Positions 23,834-30,764 of a stretch of DNA of 64,000 nucleotides are shown piece after piece. Location: NCBI RefSeq assembly GCF_900460525.1, contig NZ_UHIY01000001.1, positions 4,588,001-4,652,000 of the forward strand, given 5' to 3'. The notes under the pieces were generated by a model that did not search any database, was not told the DNA's origin, and saw nothing but the letters and a program-made list of their open reading frames with translations. A program made the translations under genes and the position numbers. The DNA comes from Yersinia kristensenii (lineage in GTDB: Bacteria; Pseudomonadota; Gammaproteobacteria; Enterobacterales; Enterobacteriaceae). Position 1 is the stretch's first letter; every line of letters starts with the position of its first letter.

Positions 23834-24151
23834 ATGAACAGAGATGAACGCTACTATAAAGCCTATATGGAAAGCAGGGTTATCAGCCGTCGGGGACTTT
23901 TTCGTGGCTTATTAAAAGGGGCTGTGGGCGAGTCGTCCCCTACCAATCACCCTCATCCGGTGATAAAAAACCCCTGCCAGAATACTTATATCTATTGTGA
24001 TAGTTGCGCCGATTATTGTGAGAAACACGCGCTAATCTGGCAACCCAATCAACCTCCAACTTTAGTTGATGATTTGTGCGATGGCTGCGGTGAATGTGTG
24101 GTTAACTGCCCGGCAATGGCACTGGAGATGGCGCATCCCGCCCCTCAGTGA
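23834..24151 (+). CDS. NapF-like 4Fe-4S ferredoxin accessory protein
   Basis: This 105-aa protein is the last gene of the dms operon. It has a twin-arginine-like SRRGLFRGLLKG near residue 18, similar to the start of NapF. Two cysteine sets follow: CQNTYIYCDSCADYC and CDGCGECVVNCP, the second being a classic [4Fe-4S] ferredoxin motif. NapF is a maturation helper for the NapA molybdoenzyme; here the analogous partner would be DmsA (inference). The start at 23834 follows GGTGA; an in-frame ATG at 23807 overlaps the chaperone gene and is less likely. Confidence 0.75.
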   Translation: MNRDERYYKAYMESRVISRRGLFRGLLKGAVGESSPTNHPHPVIKNPCQNTYIYCDSCADYCEKHALIWQPNQPPTLVDDLCDGCGECVVNCPAMALEMAHPAPQ

Positions 24152-24160
24152 GATTAAAAT

Positions 24161-24186
24161 TGTGCGGCCAGTTATCCAGCCGCACA
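24161..24186. terminator. Bidirectional hairpin between the dms operon and the NRPS-like cluster
   Basis: TGTGCGGC-CAGTTATCCA-GCCGCACA is an 8-bp perfect stem placed between two convergent transcripts. It has no T-run on the plus strand. Confidence 0.55.
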
Positions 24187-24196
24187 CCTATTGAAG

Positions 24197-27100
24197 CTAT
24201 AAAAGGCCGATACTTTTCATATAATTAAGATAACGGGATAACAATGCTGCATCGGTGGGGGGATATTCTGGCCCCCCTGCCGCCGCCAATACCGCCTGAG
24301 TCTGACGGGCATCATATCGAGGTATATTGCTGAAGACTTCCCATACTGTAAGCTCCTCATACACCACTTCGGACAGCATAGGTAACAGTGGCATTAATGG
24401 GTTGGTATCCAAGTCAGGATCGTCATATAGCCTTTGTAACCACTGTTTATAAGATAATGGCGTCATGGTGTAACCACATTGTTCAAACAGTCCAAAAAAT
24501 GCATTCAAGCTGATCGAATGCTCATCACTGGGAGGAATAAGATGATATATCTGGCCCAATCGACTGTTATCACTGGCAATACTCATTAAGGCGGCACTCG
24601 CGTAATCGACGGGAATCAGCTCTTTGCGATCACCGGGCAACAGGGGGTAAGCGCCAGTGTTGATGCACCCTTTGATCATCCGCCACATAAAATCTTCCGG
24701 ATTACCCGCCCCAGTCACACTGTCTGTCATCATGAAACCGGGCCGGTAGACCGACAACGGAATACCCCGCATTTTGGCCTGCCACATGAGCCTTTCCGTC
24801 ACCCATTTGCTCTGTATATACCCTAAGGTATATTTCATCCCCTCCCAATGGGGCATCAAATCGTCATCTTCATAAAAACGGGAGACCGGGAATAACAGGC
24901 CGGCTGGGCCAGTCGTCGCGATAGTGGAAACGTAATGCAGCGGCTTGGCTTTGCTATCTACGGCTAAGCGCAAGATATTGATAGCCCCTGAAACATTCAC
25001 CGGACGATGTGTCTGATAAGGCTCAATAAAACTGATATGGGCGGCAATATGGAAGATAACATCACAATCCTTTGCCAGCCGTTGATAATTCAGCTTATCC
25101 AATCCTAATTGAGGTTGCGCTAAATCCCCCGCCAAGGCTGTGATACGTGAATAAAACGCCGGTTGCCACAGCCCATACTTCGTCATATTTTCTTTGATTC
25201 GCTGCATCGCCTCGTCATTATTCTGGCCCCGCACCAAGCAGATCACTTGGCGAACCTCAGCATGGAGTAATAAATCACGTAAGCAAAATGCCCCCATAAA
25301 GCCCGTCGCACCCGTCAAAAATACTCGCCCGGTGGTAGCAGTTAGCCATGGTTCGGGGGGGCGGGATAAGGGCTGAATATCCTCAGGAAGCTGGCTGTCG
25401 CTGAGTAACATGGCGCATATGTCATTTTCTATCACTTCGGTCGGTTGCTGGAGCAATCGGAGCAAATTATGGGGGGTTTGGGCATCATATAAATCCTGTA
25501 TTGATAAACGCCGCCCAAACTGGCGCTTAATTTCCAGGACCAACCGAGCGGCCTGTAGTGATGTTCCTCCCAGAAGAAAGAATTCATCCTCCACAGTCGC
25601 CTGTGGCACATCGAGCACCTGCTGCCAAATCAGTAACAGTTCAGCCGCTTCTTTGGTCAGTGTTGAAGTATCAGTGGCAACTCGCGGTTTATCTATTTGG
25701 GTCAATAGCATAGATCGATCAGCTTTGCCGTTTTCATTAAGAGGAATAGCGTCCATGACCTGTAAGCGCGGCAACATATAAGGCGGAAGAGACTGTTTTA
25801 ATCCGCTAAGTAATTCACTACTATCAAAATTTTCTGGCTGTTTAGGCACAATAAAAGCCGTCAAATAAGCTTCGCCCGCTTCTTTTTTAATGATGCAAAC
25901 AACAGCAGCCAGCAGCAGATCGCTGTTAAGCAGTTGTGTTTCCACCTCCTCAACTTCAATCCGGTATCCCTGCAATTTAATCTGATTATCAGCACGCCCG
26001 GCATACATGATAGCGCCATCGGGCCGCTGCCAACCCAAATCGCCACTTCGATACCAGTGTCTGGGTTCCTCTTCGCCAGCCATTTTGATTAACAGAAATT
26101 TTTCCTGTGTCAATTCGGGGCGATTAACATACCCCCTGGCCAGCCCCTCCCCACCAATATAAATTTCGCCCTGAGTGCCTACGGGTACTGGCTGAAAATC
26201 ACCATCCAGAATAAATACCTGTGTTTTATCAAGTGGTTTGCCAATGGGGATGCTCATCGCGTTCAGGTCGTCTGCTACGATAGCGTGGCAAAGTGTGATG
26301 GTGGTGCCTTCTGTCGGGCCATAACAATTAAGTATTATTTTCGGCCATGCATCAGGTGATAGTGATTTCAGCGCCTGCAAGTTAAATGCTTCACCCCCGA
26401 CCAACAAATAATTAAGTGAACGAAAGACCGTTGGGCACTGCGGAGCCATAAAGTTAAATAATGATGTGGTCATAAATAGATAACTAACAGCATAATGTTG
26501 CAGAGTATGTTCAAGCTGTTTAGGGTCGAGCAGTGTCTCTTTGGCAATAATCACTAATGCGGCACCATTGAGCAGCGCCCCCCACACTTCCAGAAACGAA
26601 CCATCAAACGCCGGGTTAGCGTGGCAGGCCACCCGATCGGTGGGGCTTATCCGCAGATAATGAGAATTGACCAACATACGCACCATGCCACGGGCTTCAA
26701 TTTCAACCCCTTTTGGCTGCCCGGTGGTGCCTGAGGTAAATAAAATATGGCTACGATGCCGCAAACCCGCCCTCGCTCCCGGCAAGTCAACGTCAGAGTG
26801 TTCAGTGGATGGAGAAGATCCAAACCGGATAAAACGCGTCGATAACGCGCGTTCCGCCTTACAGCCATCGGTGATGGTCAGCTTCGCCCGTACCTCTTGC
26901 AACATAAAGTTGAGTCGCTCATCGGGAAGTGACGGATGAAGCGGAACACAAGTCCCTCCGGCCAGTAAAACCGCCAACTGGCAGATAATATGTTCGGCAC
27001 CTGGCCCTAATAAAATAGCCACCGGTTCTTCTGGCTGCACCCCCAACTGACATAAATTCGTGGCCAATGACTGCGCCTGTTGCGCCAATTGTGTATAACT

Positions 27101-27217
27101 CAGCGTATATTCTGGGGTAATAATGGCCGGTCGGTCTGGATACTGTTTAACCTGCTGTAAAAAAAGAGCGGCCAATCCCAACGCGGCGGGCTCAGTCTGC
27201 ATATTTGGCTGTTTCAT
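24197..27217 (-). CDS. NRPS-like adenylation-carrier-thioester reductase protein
   Basis: This is a 1006-aa single-module protein with no condensation domain. The adenylation domain (about 1-510) has A3 LFTSGTTGQPKG, YGPTE and the catalytic lysine in NENGKADR (about 498). The carrier domain (about 520-592) has the phosphopantetheine serine in LGGTSLQ (about 553). The reductase domain (about 633-1006, as in Lys2 and carboxylic acid reductases) has the nucleotide motif TGATGFMG and the catalytic YIQSK. By hand alignment to GrsA the specificity code reads D-G-L-F-L-G-C-T-I-K, suggesting a hydrophobic amino acid. It should bind an amino acid and release it as an aldehyde or alcohol. ATG 27217 has AAGGA 8 bases upstream; a TTG at 27223 is weaker. 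It ends the four-gene minus-strand operon. Confidence 0.9.
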   Translation of the reverse strand: MKQPNMQTEPAALGLAALFLQQVKQYPDRPAIITPEYTLSYTQLAQQAQSLATNLCQLGVQPEEPVAILLGPGAEHIICQLAVLLAGGTCVPLHPSLPDERLNFMLQEVRAKLTITDGCKAERALSTRFIRFGSSPSTEHSDVDLPGARAGLRHRSHILFTSGTTGQPKGVEIEARGMVRMLVNSHYLRISPTDRVACHANPAFDGSFLEVWGALLNGAALVIIAKETLLDPKQLEHTLQHYAVSYLFMTTSLFNFMAPQCPTVFRSLNYLLVGGEAFNLQALKSLSPDAWPKIILNCYGPTEGTTITLCHAIVADDLNAMSIPIGKPLDKTQVFILDGDFQPVPVGTQGEIYIGGEGLARGYVNRPELTQEKFLLIKMAGEEEPRHWYRSGDLGWQRPDGAIMYAGRADNQIKLQGYRIEVEEVETQLLNSDLLLAAVVCIIKKEAGEAYLTAFIVPKQPENFDSSELLSGLKQSLPPYMLPRLQVMDAIPLNENGKADRSMLLTQIDKPRVATDTSTLTKEAAELLLIWQQVLDVPQATVEDEFFLLGGTSLQAARLVLEIKRQFGRRLSIQDLYDAQTPHNLLRLLQQPTEVIENDICAMLLSDSQLPEDIQPLSRPPEPWLTATTGRVFLTGATGFMGAFCLRDLLLHAEVRQVICLVRGQNNDEAMQRIKENMTKYGLWQPAFYSRITALAGDLAQPQLGLDKLNYQRLAKDCDVIFHIAAHISFIEPYQTHRPVNVSGAINILRLAVDSKAKPLHYVSTIATTGPAGLLFPVSRFYEDDDLMPHWEGMKYTLGYIQSKWVTERLMWQAKMRGIPLSVYRPGFMMTDSVTGAGNPEDFMWRMIKGCINTGAYPLLPGDRKELIPVDYASAALMSIASDNSRLGQIYHLIPPSDEHSISLNAFFGLFEQCGYTMTPLSYKQWLQRLYDDPDLDTNPLMPLLPMLSEVVYEELTVWEVFSNIPRYDARQTQAVLAAAGGPEYPPTDAALLSRYLNYMKSIGLL

Positions 27218-27274
27218 ATTCAAAATCCTTTAGACATTTTGGGGGGGATGAGCTCGGATTTTCCCGCAATAGTT

Positions 27275-28845
27275 TCAAGCTATACCTGATAAACGTTGCT
27301 GTCGGTGCAAAGCAAGGAGCTGAGAGCGGTCAGCTTTACCATTAGGATTTAAGGGAATGGCATCGGCAATATGTAGGCGGGGCAACATATAAGGCGGTAG
27401 GCGCTGTTTAAGCTCATTCAATAATTGTCTACTGGTGAAACTTGCGCGATCTTTGGGCACCACAAATGCCAGTAAATACCCTTCGTCACCCTCTTTTTTA
27501 ACAGCACAAACAATCGCTTCCAGTAACCAACCGGTATTCAATAATTGTATTTCGACTTCTTCCGCCTCGATTCGGTATCCCTGCAATTTAATCTGATTGT
27601 CGATGCGCCCGGTATACATAAAAACGCCATCCGCGCGTTTCCAGCCTAAGTCACCCGTTTTATATAAACGCTTTGGGCCAGATTCACCGGCAATTTCAGT
27701 GACAATAAATTTCTCAGCCGTTAAATCAGGGCGATTAAGATATCCGCGAGCAACACCGTCACCGCCAACATAAAGTTCCCCTATTTCTCCAACAGCAGCC
27801 AATTGCAACTTTTCATCCAGAACAAAAACGTCTGTTTTATCAATGGGCTGACCTAACGGAATACTTTCAGCCGTCAAGTCATCGACACCAATCGGGTAAT
27901 ATAGGGTGTAAGTGGTATTTTCCGTCGGGCCATAGACGTTATAGATATTTTTAGCCCACTCCTCTACGGGCAAGGAGCGTAATGCTTCAAGATTAAAAGC
28001 TTCTCCGCCAATCATCAGATAACTGAGTGTGCGAAAAGCGCTTGGGCAGAGAGTGGTAATGAAATTAAATAACGAGGGGGTCACCAAAATAGAACTGACA
28101 GCATATTTTTGAAAAGTTAATTTTAATTGTTCCGGATTAAGTAACACATCGCGACTAATAATCACGATGGCCGCACCATTCAGTAATGCCCCCAAACTTC
28201 AAGTAAAATAGCGTCAAAGTCTGGTGCAGAAATACTCCCAAGCCGATCATCAGTCGCAATAGGAAGATAAGTGGCGTTGACGACCAGACGAATAATACCG
28301 CGTAGCTCAACCTCAACCGCTTTGGGTCTTCCCGTGGTGCCCGAGGTAAATAAAATATATCCACGGTGGCTCAGTGCTACTTTTTGCCCAGGGAAATCAG
28401 GATTATTCTGCTCACTGCGAGGATAGGATCCAAACAGAATAAACTGGGTTAATAATGGCCGCCCATCAGATAGCCGGTCCGTAATAGTGAAACTCGCCTG
28501 TACCTCCTGCAACATAAAATTCAAACGCTCATCAGGTGAGGTGACACTGAGGGGAACACAGCTGCCACCGGCCAGCAAAATAGCCACCTGACAAACCACT
28601 TGCTCAATACCGGATTTCAGTAAAGTCGCTACCGGGGTTTCATTTTTCACCCCCAGTTCAAGCAAGTAGGCCGCCAATGATTGCGCCTGGCGGGCGAGTT
28701 CAGCATAGCTAATGGTGCGCTCGGCAGTGATAACTGCGGGGTTATGCGGATATTGCTCAACTTGTTGTAAAAATAGATTTAATAATTCCGGGGTTCCAGA
28801 CTCTTTAATAGTTTGAAATTCTGGATATATAAATGATTGACTCAT
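27275..28845 (-). pseudogene. Stand-alone NRPS adenylation protein, frameshifted
   Basis: The gene reads in two frames: 28845-28180 encodes the first half (A3 motif LFTSGTTGRPKAVEVE) and stops after LLEVWGHY; 28195-27275 continues with GALLNGAAIVIIS and ends LSGIA. The break is at five G on the coding strand (28189-28193). The paralogous A domain at 24197-27217 has six G at the same place (LEVWGALLNGAA), so one base seems lost. Repaired, it is a complete A domain (about 520 aa) with the catalytic lysine in NPNGKADR but no carrier domain, so it would have to load the neighbour's carrier in trans. The hand-read code is D-A-L-L-M-G-V-T-Y-K. It could be a pseudogene, a phase-variable gene or an assembly error. 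Confidence 0.75.
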
Positions 28846-28964
28846 TTCCATCAACTCCTAAGCCTATTTTTTGCACGCAGCCGCCCTATGCCGCATATTT
28901 TTTATTATGACGACACAATGACCGACTCTTGATGGCAGCCGCGATGATTTAAGGGGGATTTCTG

Positions 28965-29474
28965 TTATTTGTTAATTAGCATATCAATATTGACAGCTAT
29001 TCTTCGGTCTTCTCTGGTCACCTGCCATTGGTCAATATCCAATAGCCACCATTCAGATATTGTGAGCTCATAAAATCGTCGAAGACCATTACCGGTAAAT
29101 TCACTTAGCGGTGGCATCCACTCAGCCCGAATAGCTTCATCAGGAAAGTTATAGTGCGAGAAATAATCATAGAATTCCGCGCTTTCATCAGTAGGAATTT
29201 CACGAGAAATCCCAATAAATTGAGCGCCGTCCAATCCTGGCGGGGGAGCATCCTGTAAGTCGGTACGAAATACTGAACCACTGACCTGGGAATACTGGCG
29301 GATATTTTCAGAATGTCGTGACTGGCGCATTGAACACCAAATCACCCGTAATGGGGTAAAAGCCGGGACGTAATTCACCGTCGAGGCCCAAACCCTAGCG
29401 TCCAAAGAACGGCTGGCAAGAGTGAAAAAACGCGCACTGTGCAGTAAATAAAGGCTGCGTTCTACAGGTGACAT
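28965..29474 (-). CDS. PNPOx-fold (pyridoxamine-phosphate-oxidase-like) protein
   Basis: This 169-aa protein resembles small FMN-binding split-barrel proteins of the YhbP/PNPOx group: HSARFFTLASRSLDARVWASTVNYVPAF at the start, then MRQSRHSENIRQYSQVSGSVF and GAQFIGISREIP in the order seen in YhbP (R-H-x-x-N/Q ... V-x-G-x-V ... G-x-Q-F). Such proteins bind flavin or F420 and oxidise or reduce small molecules. In this cluster it may oxidise or reduce the released product (inference). Its ATG lies one base after a stop in the alternative frame of the methyltransferase gene, which fits a tight operon. Whether it binds FMN cannot be read from sequence. Confidence 0.65.
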   Translation of the reverse strand: MSPVERSLYLLHSARFFTLASRSLDARVWASTVNYVPAFTPLRVIWCSMRQSRHSENIRQYSQVSGSVFRTDLQDAPPPGLDGAQFIGISREIPTDESAEFYDYFSHYNFPDEAIRAEWMPPLSEFTGNGLRRFYELTISEWWLLDIDQWQVTREDRRIAVNIDMLINK

Positions 29475-29475
29475 A

Positions 29476-30296
29476 TTAGCCTCGCCCTTGATTATCAGCT
29501 ACTACACCACCTTTGATTCCATCAATAATTGCCGCATGAGGAACATGCAGATAATCACTGAGAGAAACGCCACTACTCGGTTCATTGATGGGGGCTGAAG
29601 CTGCCGCCAGGAAAGAGAATGGAAACCTGCACGTTCTAATGTCGCCATTAACGTTTCTGCTGACCAATAATGGGCGTCAATATTCACATTATAAGGGGGC
29701 TGGCAAATATGCAGATTAACAATACTGCCGTCTGTTCGCGGTTCTTTTTCTAACAGACGTAATCCATATGGGCGGTAATATTCGGGGTCAGAATGAAAGT
29801 CGGGATGAATTGGCAGGGTAATTAAGCGCCCGCCGGACTTTAAAAGCCGGGCCATAGTCTGACTCATACTCAACAATTTTTCTTTATCGGGGGCATAAGG
29901 CATCACATAGACTGCTAATACCAGATCAAATTCTGCGGTAAGACTGTCATCAAGAGCGGAGAGATAAGATATTCCCTGTGGTTGCTGTTTTTCCTTAAAT
30001 TTGGCGTAATCGAGCATCCCTTCAGAAATATCATAACCGACAACACTCTCAGCCCCTTTGCTATGTAGCCAGCGGGATAGAAATCCGGGGCCGCAACCAA
30101 AATCTAATACTTTTAACCCCGACAAATCCCCTAACAATCCCCCAAGTGTTGGGATTTCAAGATATTGCCGATAAGGTGCCATAAACATTTTTTCATAGAG
30201 ATCGGCATATTCATCAAAAGTTTTTTCATCAAAATTTGCCGCTATTTTTTGCTGTTTGTTGATGAATTTGGGGCTGTCATTTGGCTCAATGCTCAT
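29476..30296 (-). CDS. Class I SAM-dependent methyltransferase, probable C-terminal frameshift
   Basis: This is the first gene of the cluster. SAM motif I is VLDFGCGPGFLSRWL (about residue 62), followed by the acidic loop GYDISEGML and motif IV-like FDLVLAVYVMPY. The annotated frame ends at 29502 with an odd hydrophobic tail (RVVAFLSVIICMFLMRQLL). The -1 frame instead gives INEPSSGVSLSDYLHVPHAAII and stops at 29476, one base before the next ATG. That tail looks like a normal methyltransferase end and the spacing is operon-like. The switch falls at five C on the coding strand (29590-29594), where six would fuse the frames. I list the longer, repaired extent. The substrate is unknown. Confidence 0.7.
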
Positions 30297-30764
30297 ACTT
30301 CCTCACTACATGCGGATAAGTAAAAGTAACCGTCAATCCTCCAATAGCCGAACTATCAAGATGGCGACGTGTTCTATTCCCCAATGAAATGATATGACTT
30401 CCCAATCAATAGTTACTGTCATCCCTAGTTAAAAACATTAGTTTTGTTTAATATTCTTTGCAAGGTTGTTAACTAAATTATTATTAATTGTTAACTAGCC
30501 GCGTCGGTACAAGCAGGGGCAAAAGGCAAGGTTAAGTCAGCCAAATTAAATAGTTAAAAAGATTAGAATGTTTGAATACTTTTAATGCTATTTAATTTCC
30601 CCCTCCTTGTACCGGAATGGGCGCGGTCTGTTAGCAAACAGCCAATCTCCAGTAACAGGAAAGAGAAGCTGGCGACAGTAACACGTGAAATAAGTAACCC
30701 CGCATAGCTGATGCCAGTACAATGTCCGCATCTTGAAGTACTTTGTTCCCACAGGAGCTACACC
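30297..30764. promoter_or_regulatory. Control region upstream of the NRPS-like cluster, with paired TTGTTAACTA sites
   Basis: This 468-bp gap is AT-rich. TTGTTAACTA occurs at 30466-30475 and again at 30488-30497, 22 bp apart (two helical turns). It is a likely binding array for a dimeric regulator, 170-200 bases upstream of the methyltransferase start. No regulator gene adjoins the cluster. A minus-strand open frame at 30588-30824 has no family resemblance and I do not call it. Confidence 0.45.

What the first reader, a model, noticed from the sequence alone, without database searches (positions are those of the whole stretch)
24197..30296. Four-gene NRPS-like cluster without a condensation domain, ending in a thioester reductase
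Seen: methyltransferase, PNPOx-fold protein, stand-alone A domain and A-carrier-reductase in tight minus-strand order. Known: such reductases release the loaded acid as an aldehyde (Lys2, carboxylic acid reductases; PvfC-type proteins lead to pyrazines or diazeniumdiolates). Inferred: the cluster makes a small modified amino-acid aldehyde or a pyrazine-like dimer. The second A domain has a different hand-read code (D-A-L-L-M-G-V-T-Y-K against D-G-L-F-L-G-C-T-I-K), so it might load a second amino acid onto the same carrier in trans. I recall no described Yersinia product with this gene set.
Basis: partly seen in the sequence, partly recalled or inferred. Interest (0 to 1): 0.75.

Follow-up and report, generated by a model that had tools for sequence, protein, structure and literature searches.

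The report
Candidate genes for potato-odour methoxypyrazines
Four neighbouring genes in a Yersinia genome look like one version of a bacterial recipe for alkyl-methoxypyrazines, the musty potato-smelling compounds whose bacterial genes I could not find described, although two of the four genes look broken in this isolate.

Summary
The four genes are real, at the stated place, without a condensation domain. Two corrections: the stand-alone adenylation (A) gene is split into two frames, and the methyltransferase (MT) tail is out of frame. A nearly identical intact A protein exists in public data.

The key is the MT plus PNPOx-fold pair, not the NRPS part. Of 39 named loci with this PNPOx, 32 carry a homologous MT. 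Their front ends: FemAB-like gene plus small protein (29), threonine dehydrogenase plus FemAB-like gene (6), A plus A-T-reductase (1; also the window and a Serratia nevei plasmid), neither (3). All three front ends fit one chemistry: an aminoacyl-aminocarbonyl closes to a dihydropyrazinone, the PNPOx aromatises it, the MT O-methylates it. Of 11 species named as methoxypyrazine emitters in passages I read, 6 appear among carriers of one or more of these genes.

Best reading: an alkyl-methoxypyrazine pathway with an exchangeable front end, at a variable chromosomal site, probably decaying in this isolate. No chemistry was tested. Open-licence literature showed no such gene cluster; other literature could not be checked.

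The parts
29502..30296 (-). Methyltransferase (MT), proposed O-methyltransferase of the hydroxypyrazine; its last part (from about residue 235) departs from the family frame
   Evidence: Methyltransf_25 57 bits; homologue in 32 of 39 PNPOx loci; tail compared in separate frames
28965..29474 (-). PNPOx-fold protein, proposed flavin-dependent dihydropyrazinone oxidase
   Evidence: PNPOx_N 23.5 bits, below cut-off 28.1; model pLDDT 92.4; split-barrel matches incl. PhzG
28180..28854 (-). First piece (224 aa) of the stand-alone A domain; frame lost near its end
   Evidence: AMP-binding profile positions 3-225
27275..28195 (-). Second piece (306 aa) of the stand-alone A domain, in another frame; no carrier domain follows
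   Evidence: AMP-binding positions 225-384 and AMP-binding_C
24197..27223 (-). A-T-R: adenylation (about residues 23-505), carrier (528-591), thioester reductase (634-1008)
   Evidence: Pfam and NCBIfam; motifs SGTTG, GGTSL, GATGFMG, YxxxK
24133..30688 (.). Variable chromosomal site holding the cluster; flanks conserved in other Yersinia

Best explanation
A compact alkyl-methoxypyrazine pathway. Inferred steps: the stand-alone A activates a branched amino acid (Val/Ile/Leu) as its adenylate; the A-T-R loads a second, probably small, amino acid on its carrier. The amide bond forms without a condensation domain, by attack of the second amino group on the adenylate, either on the carrier before release or by the released amino aldehyde. 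The reductase gives an aldehyde that closes on the free amine to a dihydropyrazinone; the PNPOx-fold enzyme aromatises it to the hydroxypyrazine; the MT O-methylates it to a 3-alkyl-2-methoxy(-6-alkyl)pyrazine. In other bacteria the same MT/PNPOx pair would be fed by a FemAB-like enzyme (probably using aminoacyl-tRNA) and an aminoketone such as threonine-derived aminoacetone. Shown: gene order, domains, motifs, recurrence and exchange of front ends. Inferred: every chemical step. In the window's own isolate two genes look broken, so a working pathway there is doubtful.
For: Of 39 named PNPOx loci, 32 have the MT homologue; 29 FemAB-like + small protein (in L014 about 8 kb away), 6 threonine dehydrogenase + FemAB-like, 1 A + A-T-R, 3 neither. 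Threonine 3-dehydrogenase: NF003808 417.2 bits, cut-off 380; FemAB_like 46.2, cut-off 27. MT relatives there score about 165-351 bits, next MT in the own genome 26.7. A/A-T-R and Tdh types are each one clade of the PNPOx tree (100/99 and 99/97). Full four-gene set in P. burhodogranariea and on S. nevei pSNEVa. PhzG among structural matches. 6 of 11 species named as methoxypyrazine emitters in passages read are among carriers.
Against: No product measured. TIGR00692 (tdh) 355.1 bits is below its cut-off 458.35. 5 of the 11 emitters (S. odorifera, S. rubidaea, P. perolens, P. taetrolens, L. capsici) were not seen in the truncated lists. For 5 of the 6 carriers only one or two of the proteins were seen, not the locus, and strains may differ; part of the overlap was visible before the hypothesis was written. 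7 of 39 loci lack the MT. The split-barrel fold also fits haem and F420 proteins. No program predicted the A specificities. Orphan A-T-R relatives occur without the pair (L073, L074). A putative isopropylmethoxypyrazine in B. cenocepacia was reported beside ham-cluster products, so another route may exist.
Confidence: 0.6

Rival explanations
1. One reading: the A-T-R releases a free amino aldehyde that dimerises to a 2,5-dialkyl(dihydro)pyrazine, PvfC-like; MT and PNPOx modify it in some other way.
For: A-T-R architecture with complete reductase motifs; orphan A-T-Rs without the pair exist (L073, L074) and could do just this.
Against: A symmetrical dialkylpyrazine offers no hydroxyl for the MT; it does not explain the second A protein nor why the same MT/PNPOx pair goes with FemAB-like genes in 29 + 6 of 39 loci.
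Confidence: 0.15
2. A related but different end product: the cyclised dipeptide aldehyde is N- or C-methylated, or the PNPOx-fold protein is a haem enzyme doing other nitrogen chemistry.
Against: By sequence profile only weak matches to such proteins (best 5bnc, E 0.0094); association with species named as methoxypyrazine emitters.
Confidence: 0.15
3. In this isolate the cluster is a remnant and makes nothing (compatible with the main reading of the family).
For: A gene in two frames, MT tail out of frame, while an almost identical intact A exists; variable site across Yersinia.
Against: Either break may be a sequencing or assembly error; PNPOx and A-T-R are open with motifs kept.
Confidence: 0.5

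Closest known systems
AusA-type pyrazinone synthetases (aureusimine)
   Same: A domains and reductase; second-best NCBIfam match of the A-T-R (480.3 bits); reductive release of a dipeptide aldehyde that closes to a pyrazinone (recalled)
   Different: AusA is one A-T-C-A-T-R protein (recalled); here separate A and A-T-R, one carrier, no condensation domain, plus MT and PNPOx; far below the 2500 cut-off
MxcG (myxochelin A-T-reductase synthetase)
   Same: Best NCBIfam match of the A-T-R, 550.2 bits, residues 19-1007
   Different: Far below the 2300 cut-off; the match starts at profile position 460, so the N-terminal part of MxcG is absent here
Pvf/Mgo/Ham clusters (PvfC-like A-T-R; pyrazine N-oxides, fragin)
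   Same: A-T-R protein and pyrazine-type products (PMC8560942 passages)
   Different: No N-oxygenase gene in the window cluster; MT, PNPOx and a second A instead
PhzG of phenazine synthesis
   Same: Split-barrel fold; oxidises a reduced ring that contains a pyrazine core (function recalled); Foldseek E 2.1e-7
   Different: 12-13% identity; other pathway
FemAB-like + MT + PNPOx sets of Vreelandella venusta, Xenorhabdus, Burkholderia, actinobacteria
   Same: Same MT/PNPOx pair
   Different: FemAB-like gene and 110-aa protein, or threonine dehydrogenase and FemAB-like gene, in place of A and A-T-R

Membership tests
AusA-type pyrazinone synthetase | Condensation domain joining two modules | tested here: not met
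   No condensation domain in the Pfam hits of the five ORFs
AusA-type pyrazinone synthetase | NCBIfam NF047350 score at or above 2500 | tested here: not met
   480.3 bits
Myxochelin synthetase MxcG | NCBIfam NF038078 score at or above 2300 | tested here: not met
   550.2 bits
Pvf/Mgo-type cluster | N-oxygenase gene beside the A-T-R (feature recalled) | tested here: not met
   The ORFs between 24197 and 30296 are MT, PNPOx-like, A pieces and A-T-R only
A-T-R (Lys2/CAR-like thioester reductase proteins) | A, carrier and reductase domains with carrier serine and reductase motifs | tested here: met
   (TIGR01746 322.5, cut-off 213.35)
PNPOx-like split-barrel protein | Split-barrel fold | tested here: met
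PNPOx-like split-barrel protein | FMN cofactor | not testable with these tools
   Haem, FMN and F420 proteins share the fold
Alkyl-methoxypyrazine pathway (works like; no defined gene family) | Conserved link of MT and PNPOx with a source of aminoacyl-aminocarbonyl | tested here: met
   36 of 39 loci have a front end, 32 of 39 the MT
Alkyl-methoxypyrazine pathway (works like; no defined gene family) | Presence in proven emitters | tested here: inconclusive
   6 of 11 named emitters among carriers; 5 not seen in truncated lists
Alkyl-methoxypyrazine pathway (works like; no defined gene family) | Methoxypyrazine made by the cluster | not testable with these tools
   Needs GC-MS of a deletion or a heterologous host

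The most novel reading that the evidence does not exclude
The MT/PNPOx pair is the conserved core of bacterial alkyl-methoxypyrazine synthesis, for which I found no described genes, and evolution exchanges its amide-forming front end between a FemAB-like, probably aminoacyl-tRNA-dependent enzyme and a condensation-free pair of NRPS-like proteins (A plus A-T-R).
Probability: 0.5. Interest if true: 0.85.

Novelty: new variant of a known kind. Interest (0 to 1): 0.7.

Why it matters
Methoxypyrazines are potent odours linked to the potato-taste defect of coffee, other off-flavours and insect signals. A 2019 review says that all pathway steps except O-methylation remain ambiguous (PMC6943733, passages). 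The gene sets here would make the bacterial pathway directly testable in harmless emitters, add a peptide-bond-forming pair of adenylation proteins without a condensation domain, and give a clean case of tRNA-dependent and NRPS-like modules replacing each other before the same tailoring enzymes.

Tried and rejected
Empty or weak: the genome-contig scan with the single PNPOx gave 50 pattern matches and no relative, so an alignment of 41 of the 58 proteins plus the window protein was used. PDB sequence search of the PNPOx found nothing; its profile gave 4 weak hits. The cluster DNA has no near match among plasmids. The order sample found the PNPOx (E up to 1e-20) in 1 of 394 genomes, the window's own. 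The family sample found it in 8 of 392; of the 7 others, 6 contexts were fetched: S. nevei has the full set, G627 has MT and PNPOx (its contig has the length of the L009 contig, so it is probably the same record), and 4 (L053-L056; L054 cut at a contig end) show no MT; G663 was not fetched. A PADLOC match of the MT (mad2, 50.1 bits over 150 residues) is taken as generic methyltransferase likeness. LnzB, a structural hit, occurs in a piperazate synthase paper (search listing only, PMC13274692).

Absence from print: searches (open-licence PMC only, lists partly truncated) listed no bacterial methoxypyrazine gene cluster; subscription journals could not be searched, so it may be published. From the emitter count I left out P. 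aeruginosa (listed under pyrazines in general), B. cenocepacia (putative) and aquaculture myxobacteria (tentative). The S. marcescens entry rests on a secondary table. No specificity predictor and no MIBiG search were available.
Full report
Observation. Pfam finds no condensation domain. The A-T-R keeps the motifs SGTTG, GGTSL, GATGFMG and YxxxK. Both hand-read codes are correct. Two corrections: the stand-alone A is two overlapping ORFs in different frames, and the MT ORF leaves its family near residue 235, the conserved tail lying in another frame. A nearly identical intact A protein exists (P0131; 219 of 221 and 304 of 306 aligned positions identical to the pieces); its source is not shown by the tool.

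Setting. The genome has 4,733,508 bases in 3 contigs. The cluster lies between conserved flanks ending near 24133 and 30688. Spacing of the two flanks in 25 Yersinia genomes: own 6559 bases (the cluster); 7 genomes 72-181; 8 genomes 2262-2303 (in one of these, G007, the left flank match is only 76 bases); 1 genome 590; 2 genomes 8635 and 8698; 6 could not be judged. Four were read: G011 is empty; G019 and G018 hold lipoprotein genes (CsgG, DUF4810 and GNA1162-like by Pfam in G019; CsgG and GNA1162-like in G018); G013 holds a GNA1162-like gene and more. The site is variable and the cluster was probably acquired. An A-T-R match at E up to 1e-100 occurs in 4 of 25 genomes: own; G010, 51% identical, an orphan without MT or PNPOx beside it; and two at 32% in open frames of about 3,950 codons.

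The pair is the clue. The PNPOx finds 58 proteins and, as a 42-row profile, 155, of which 120 are listed. In genome contigs 39 named loci hold it. tblastn of the neighbours (after) gives: MT homologue in 32 of 39 (absent in L012, L014, L022, L024, L028, L034, L038; L024 begins at the FemAB gene); FemAB-like gene plus a 110-aa protein in 29 (in L014 about 8 kb away); L-threonine 3-dehydrogenase homologue plus a second FemAB-like protein in 6; neither in 3 (L008, L009, L023); A plus A-T-R in 1 (L002, Providencia burhodogranariea). A NanE-like gene is present in 6 of the 29. Scores: FemAB_like 46.2 bits (cut-off 27) for Yersinia aleksiciae; for the Streptomyces lushanensis dehydrogenase 417.2 (cut-off 380) in one NCBIfam model but 355.1 (cut-off 458.35) in another. 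MT relatives in these loci score about 165-351 bits against 26.7 for the next MT in the window's own genome, so the link is specific.

A further complete set lies on plasmid pSNEVa of Serratia nevei. It stands between two Tn3 transposase ORFs on opposite strands (L051:6068-8230, 491.1 bits; L051:14862-15386, 174.5 bits, partial), with IS91-type and IS3-like genes near by (IS3 is recalled from the integrase-core hits), so that copy is probably mobile. Pantoea coffeiphila and Collimonas pratensis each have PNPOx and stand-alone A on contigs of equal length (166518 and 234834), so co-location is inferred. In a 52-row PNPOx tree (39 loci, window, S. nevei, 11 proteins) the A/A-T-R type is one clade (100/99) on the enterobacterial side and the Tdh type one clade (99/97) among actinobacterial FemAB types (rooted for drawing only). 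Two of the five A/A-T-R labels are the inferred ones, and S. fonticola and S. marcescens, whose context was not seen, fall in the same clade.

Mechanism (inferred). FemAB relatives transfer amino acids from tRNA and threonine dehydrogenase leads to aminoacetone (both recalled). Aminoacyl-aminoacetone would close to a dihydropyrazinone; oxidation and O-methylation would give a 3-alkyl-2-methoxy-5-methylpyrazine, a type reported from Serratia and C. crocatus. In the window type, A and A-T-R would make an aminoacyl-amino aldehyde, giving a 3-alkyl-2-methoxypyrazine or its 6-alkyl homologue; 3-isobutyl-2-methoxy-6-methylpyrazine is reported from S. odorifera. The literature proposal is condensation of valine or isoleucine with glycine (PMC7427108 passage). 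The PNPOx model (pLDDT 92.4) is a split barrel; PhzG, which oxidises reduced phenazine rings (recalled), is among the Foldseek hits, but haem and F420 proteins fit as well. The code DALLMGVTYK is shared by the window pieces, P0131, S. nevei, S. ficaria, P. coffeiphila and P. burhodogranariea; Collimonas has DALMMAATFK and Sodalis DALMMGVTFK. That A takes a branched and A-T-R a small amino acid is inferred.

Emitters. Passages read in PMC6392489, PMC6341129, PMC7427108, PMC6943733 and PMC9127006 name 11 species: C. davisae, S. ficaria, S. marcescens, S. odorifera, S. rubidaea, P. perolens, P. taetrolens, Pantoea coffeiphila, Chondromyces crocatus, Halomonas venusta, Lysobacter capsici. Carriers: C. 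davisae, S. marcescens and C. crocatus (PNPOx seen), S. ficaria (A seen), P. coffeiphila (PNPOx and A), Vreelandella (= Halomonas) venusta (MT, FemAB-like, small protein, PNPOx; L018): 6 of 11. The family is rare (1 of 394 and 8 of 392 sampled genomes, the latter including distant PNPOx), so chance overlap is unlikely. Against this: Cedecea and Serratia hits were visible before I wrote the hypothesis, strains may differ, and five emitters were not seen in truncated lists. S. ficaria, C. crocatus and the producer status of V. venusta came after it. A putative isopropylmethoxypyrazine in Burkholderia cenocepacia was reported beside ham-cluster products (PMC8560942 passages), a possible other route.

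Verdict. What it works like: a condensation-free pyrazinone synthetase with an oxidase and an O-methyltransferase, best explained as an alkyl-methoxypyrazine pathway. What it is a member of: not AusA-, MxcG- or Pvf/Mgo-type by the features tested. In this isolate function is doubtful. Open-licence searches listed no bacterial gene cluster for these odours; other literature was out of reach.

Noticed in passing
L073:6937-10002 (Yersinia G010) and L074:2944-6017 (Pseudomonas karstica): Orphan A-T-R relatives (code DAFFLGxTFK) without MT or PNPOx beside them; in P. karstica the protein lies in two overlapping ORFs, and the same genome also has a FemAB-type MT/PNPOx set (L021).
   Followed up: partly
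P0137 (Providencia alcalifaciens, 707 aa): The first 95 residues match the stand-alone A (82%) and the rest the A-T-R (87%) of P. burhodogranariea, ending inside the reductase: looks like a fusion of the two neighbouring genes.
   Followed up: partly
window 24133-30688; L076:1553-3263; L077:866-2576: In two Yersinia genomes read, the same site holds a lipoprotein trio of CsgG, DUF4810 and GNA1162-like genes instead of the cluster; others are empty or hold longer inserts.
   Followed up: partly
L003:9655-9999 and L018:9630-9962: The 110-aa protein next to the FemAB-like gene in 29 of 39 loci matches no Pfam or NCBIfam family.
   Followed up: no
L003:10522-11208; also L007, L011, L019, L021, L025: A NanE-like epimerase sits beside some FemAB-type sets; why a sugar-phosphate epimerase relative belongs there is unexplained.
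   Followed up: no
P0141 (record named Bradysia odoriphaga, 909 aa): A bacterial-type A-T-R in a fly assembly; contamination, a symbiont or transfer, not examined.
   Followed up: no
L051:256-15386 (Serratia nevei plasmid pSNEVa): The four-gene cluster is flanked by two Tn3 transposase ORFs in opposite orientation and by other transposase genes.
   Followed up: partly
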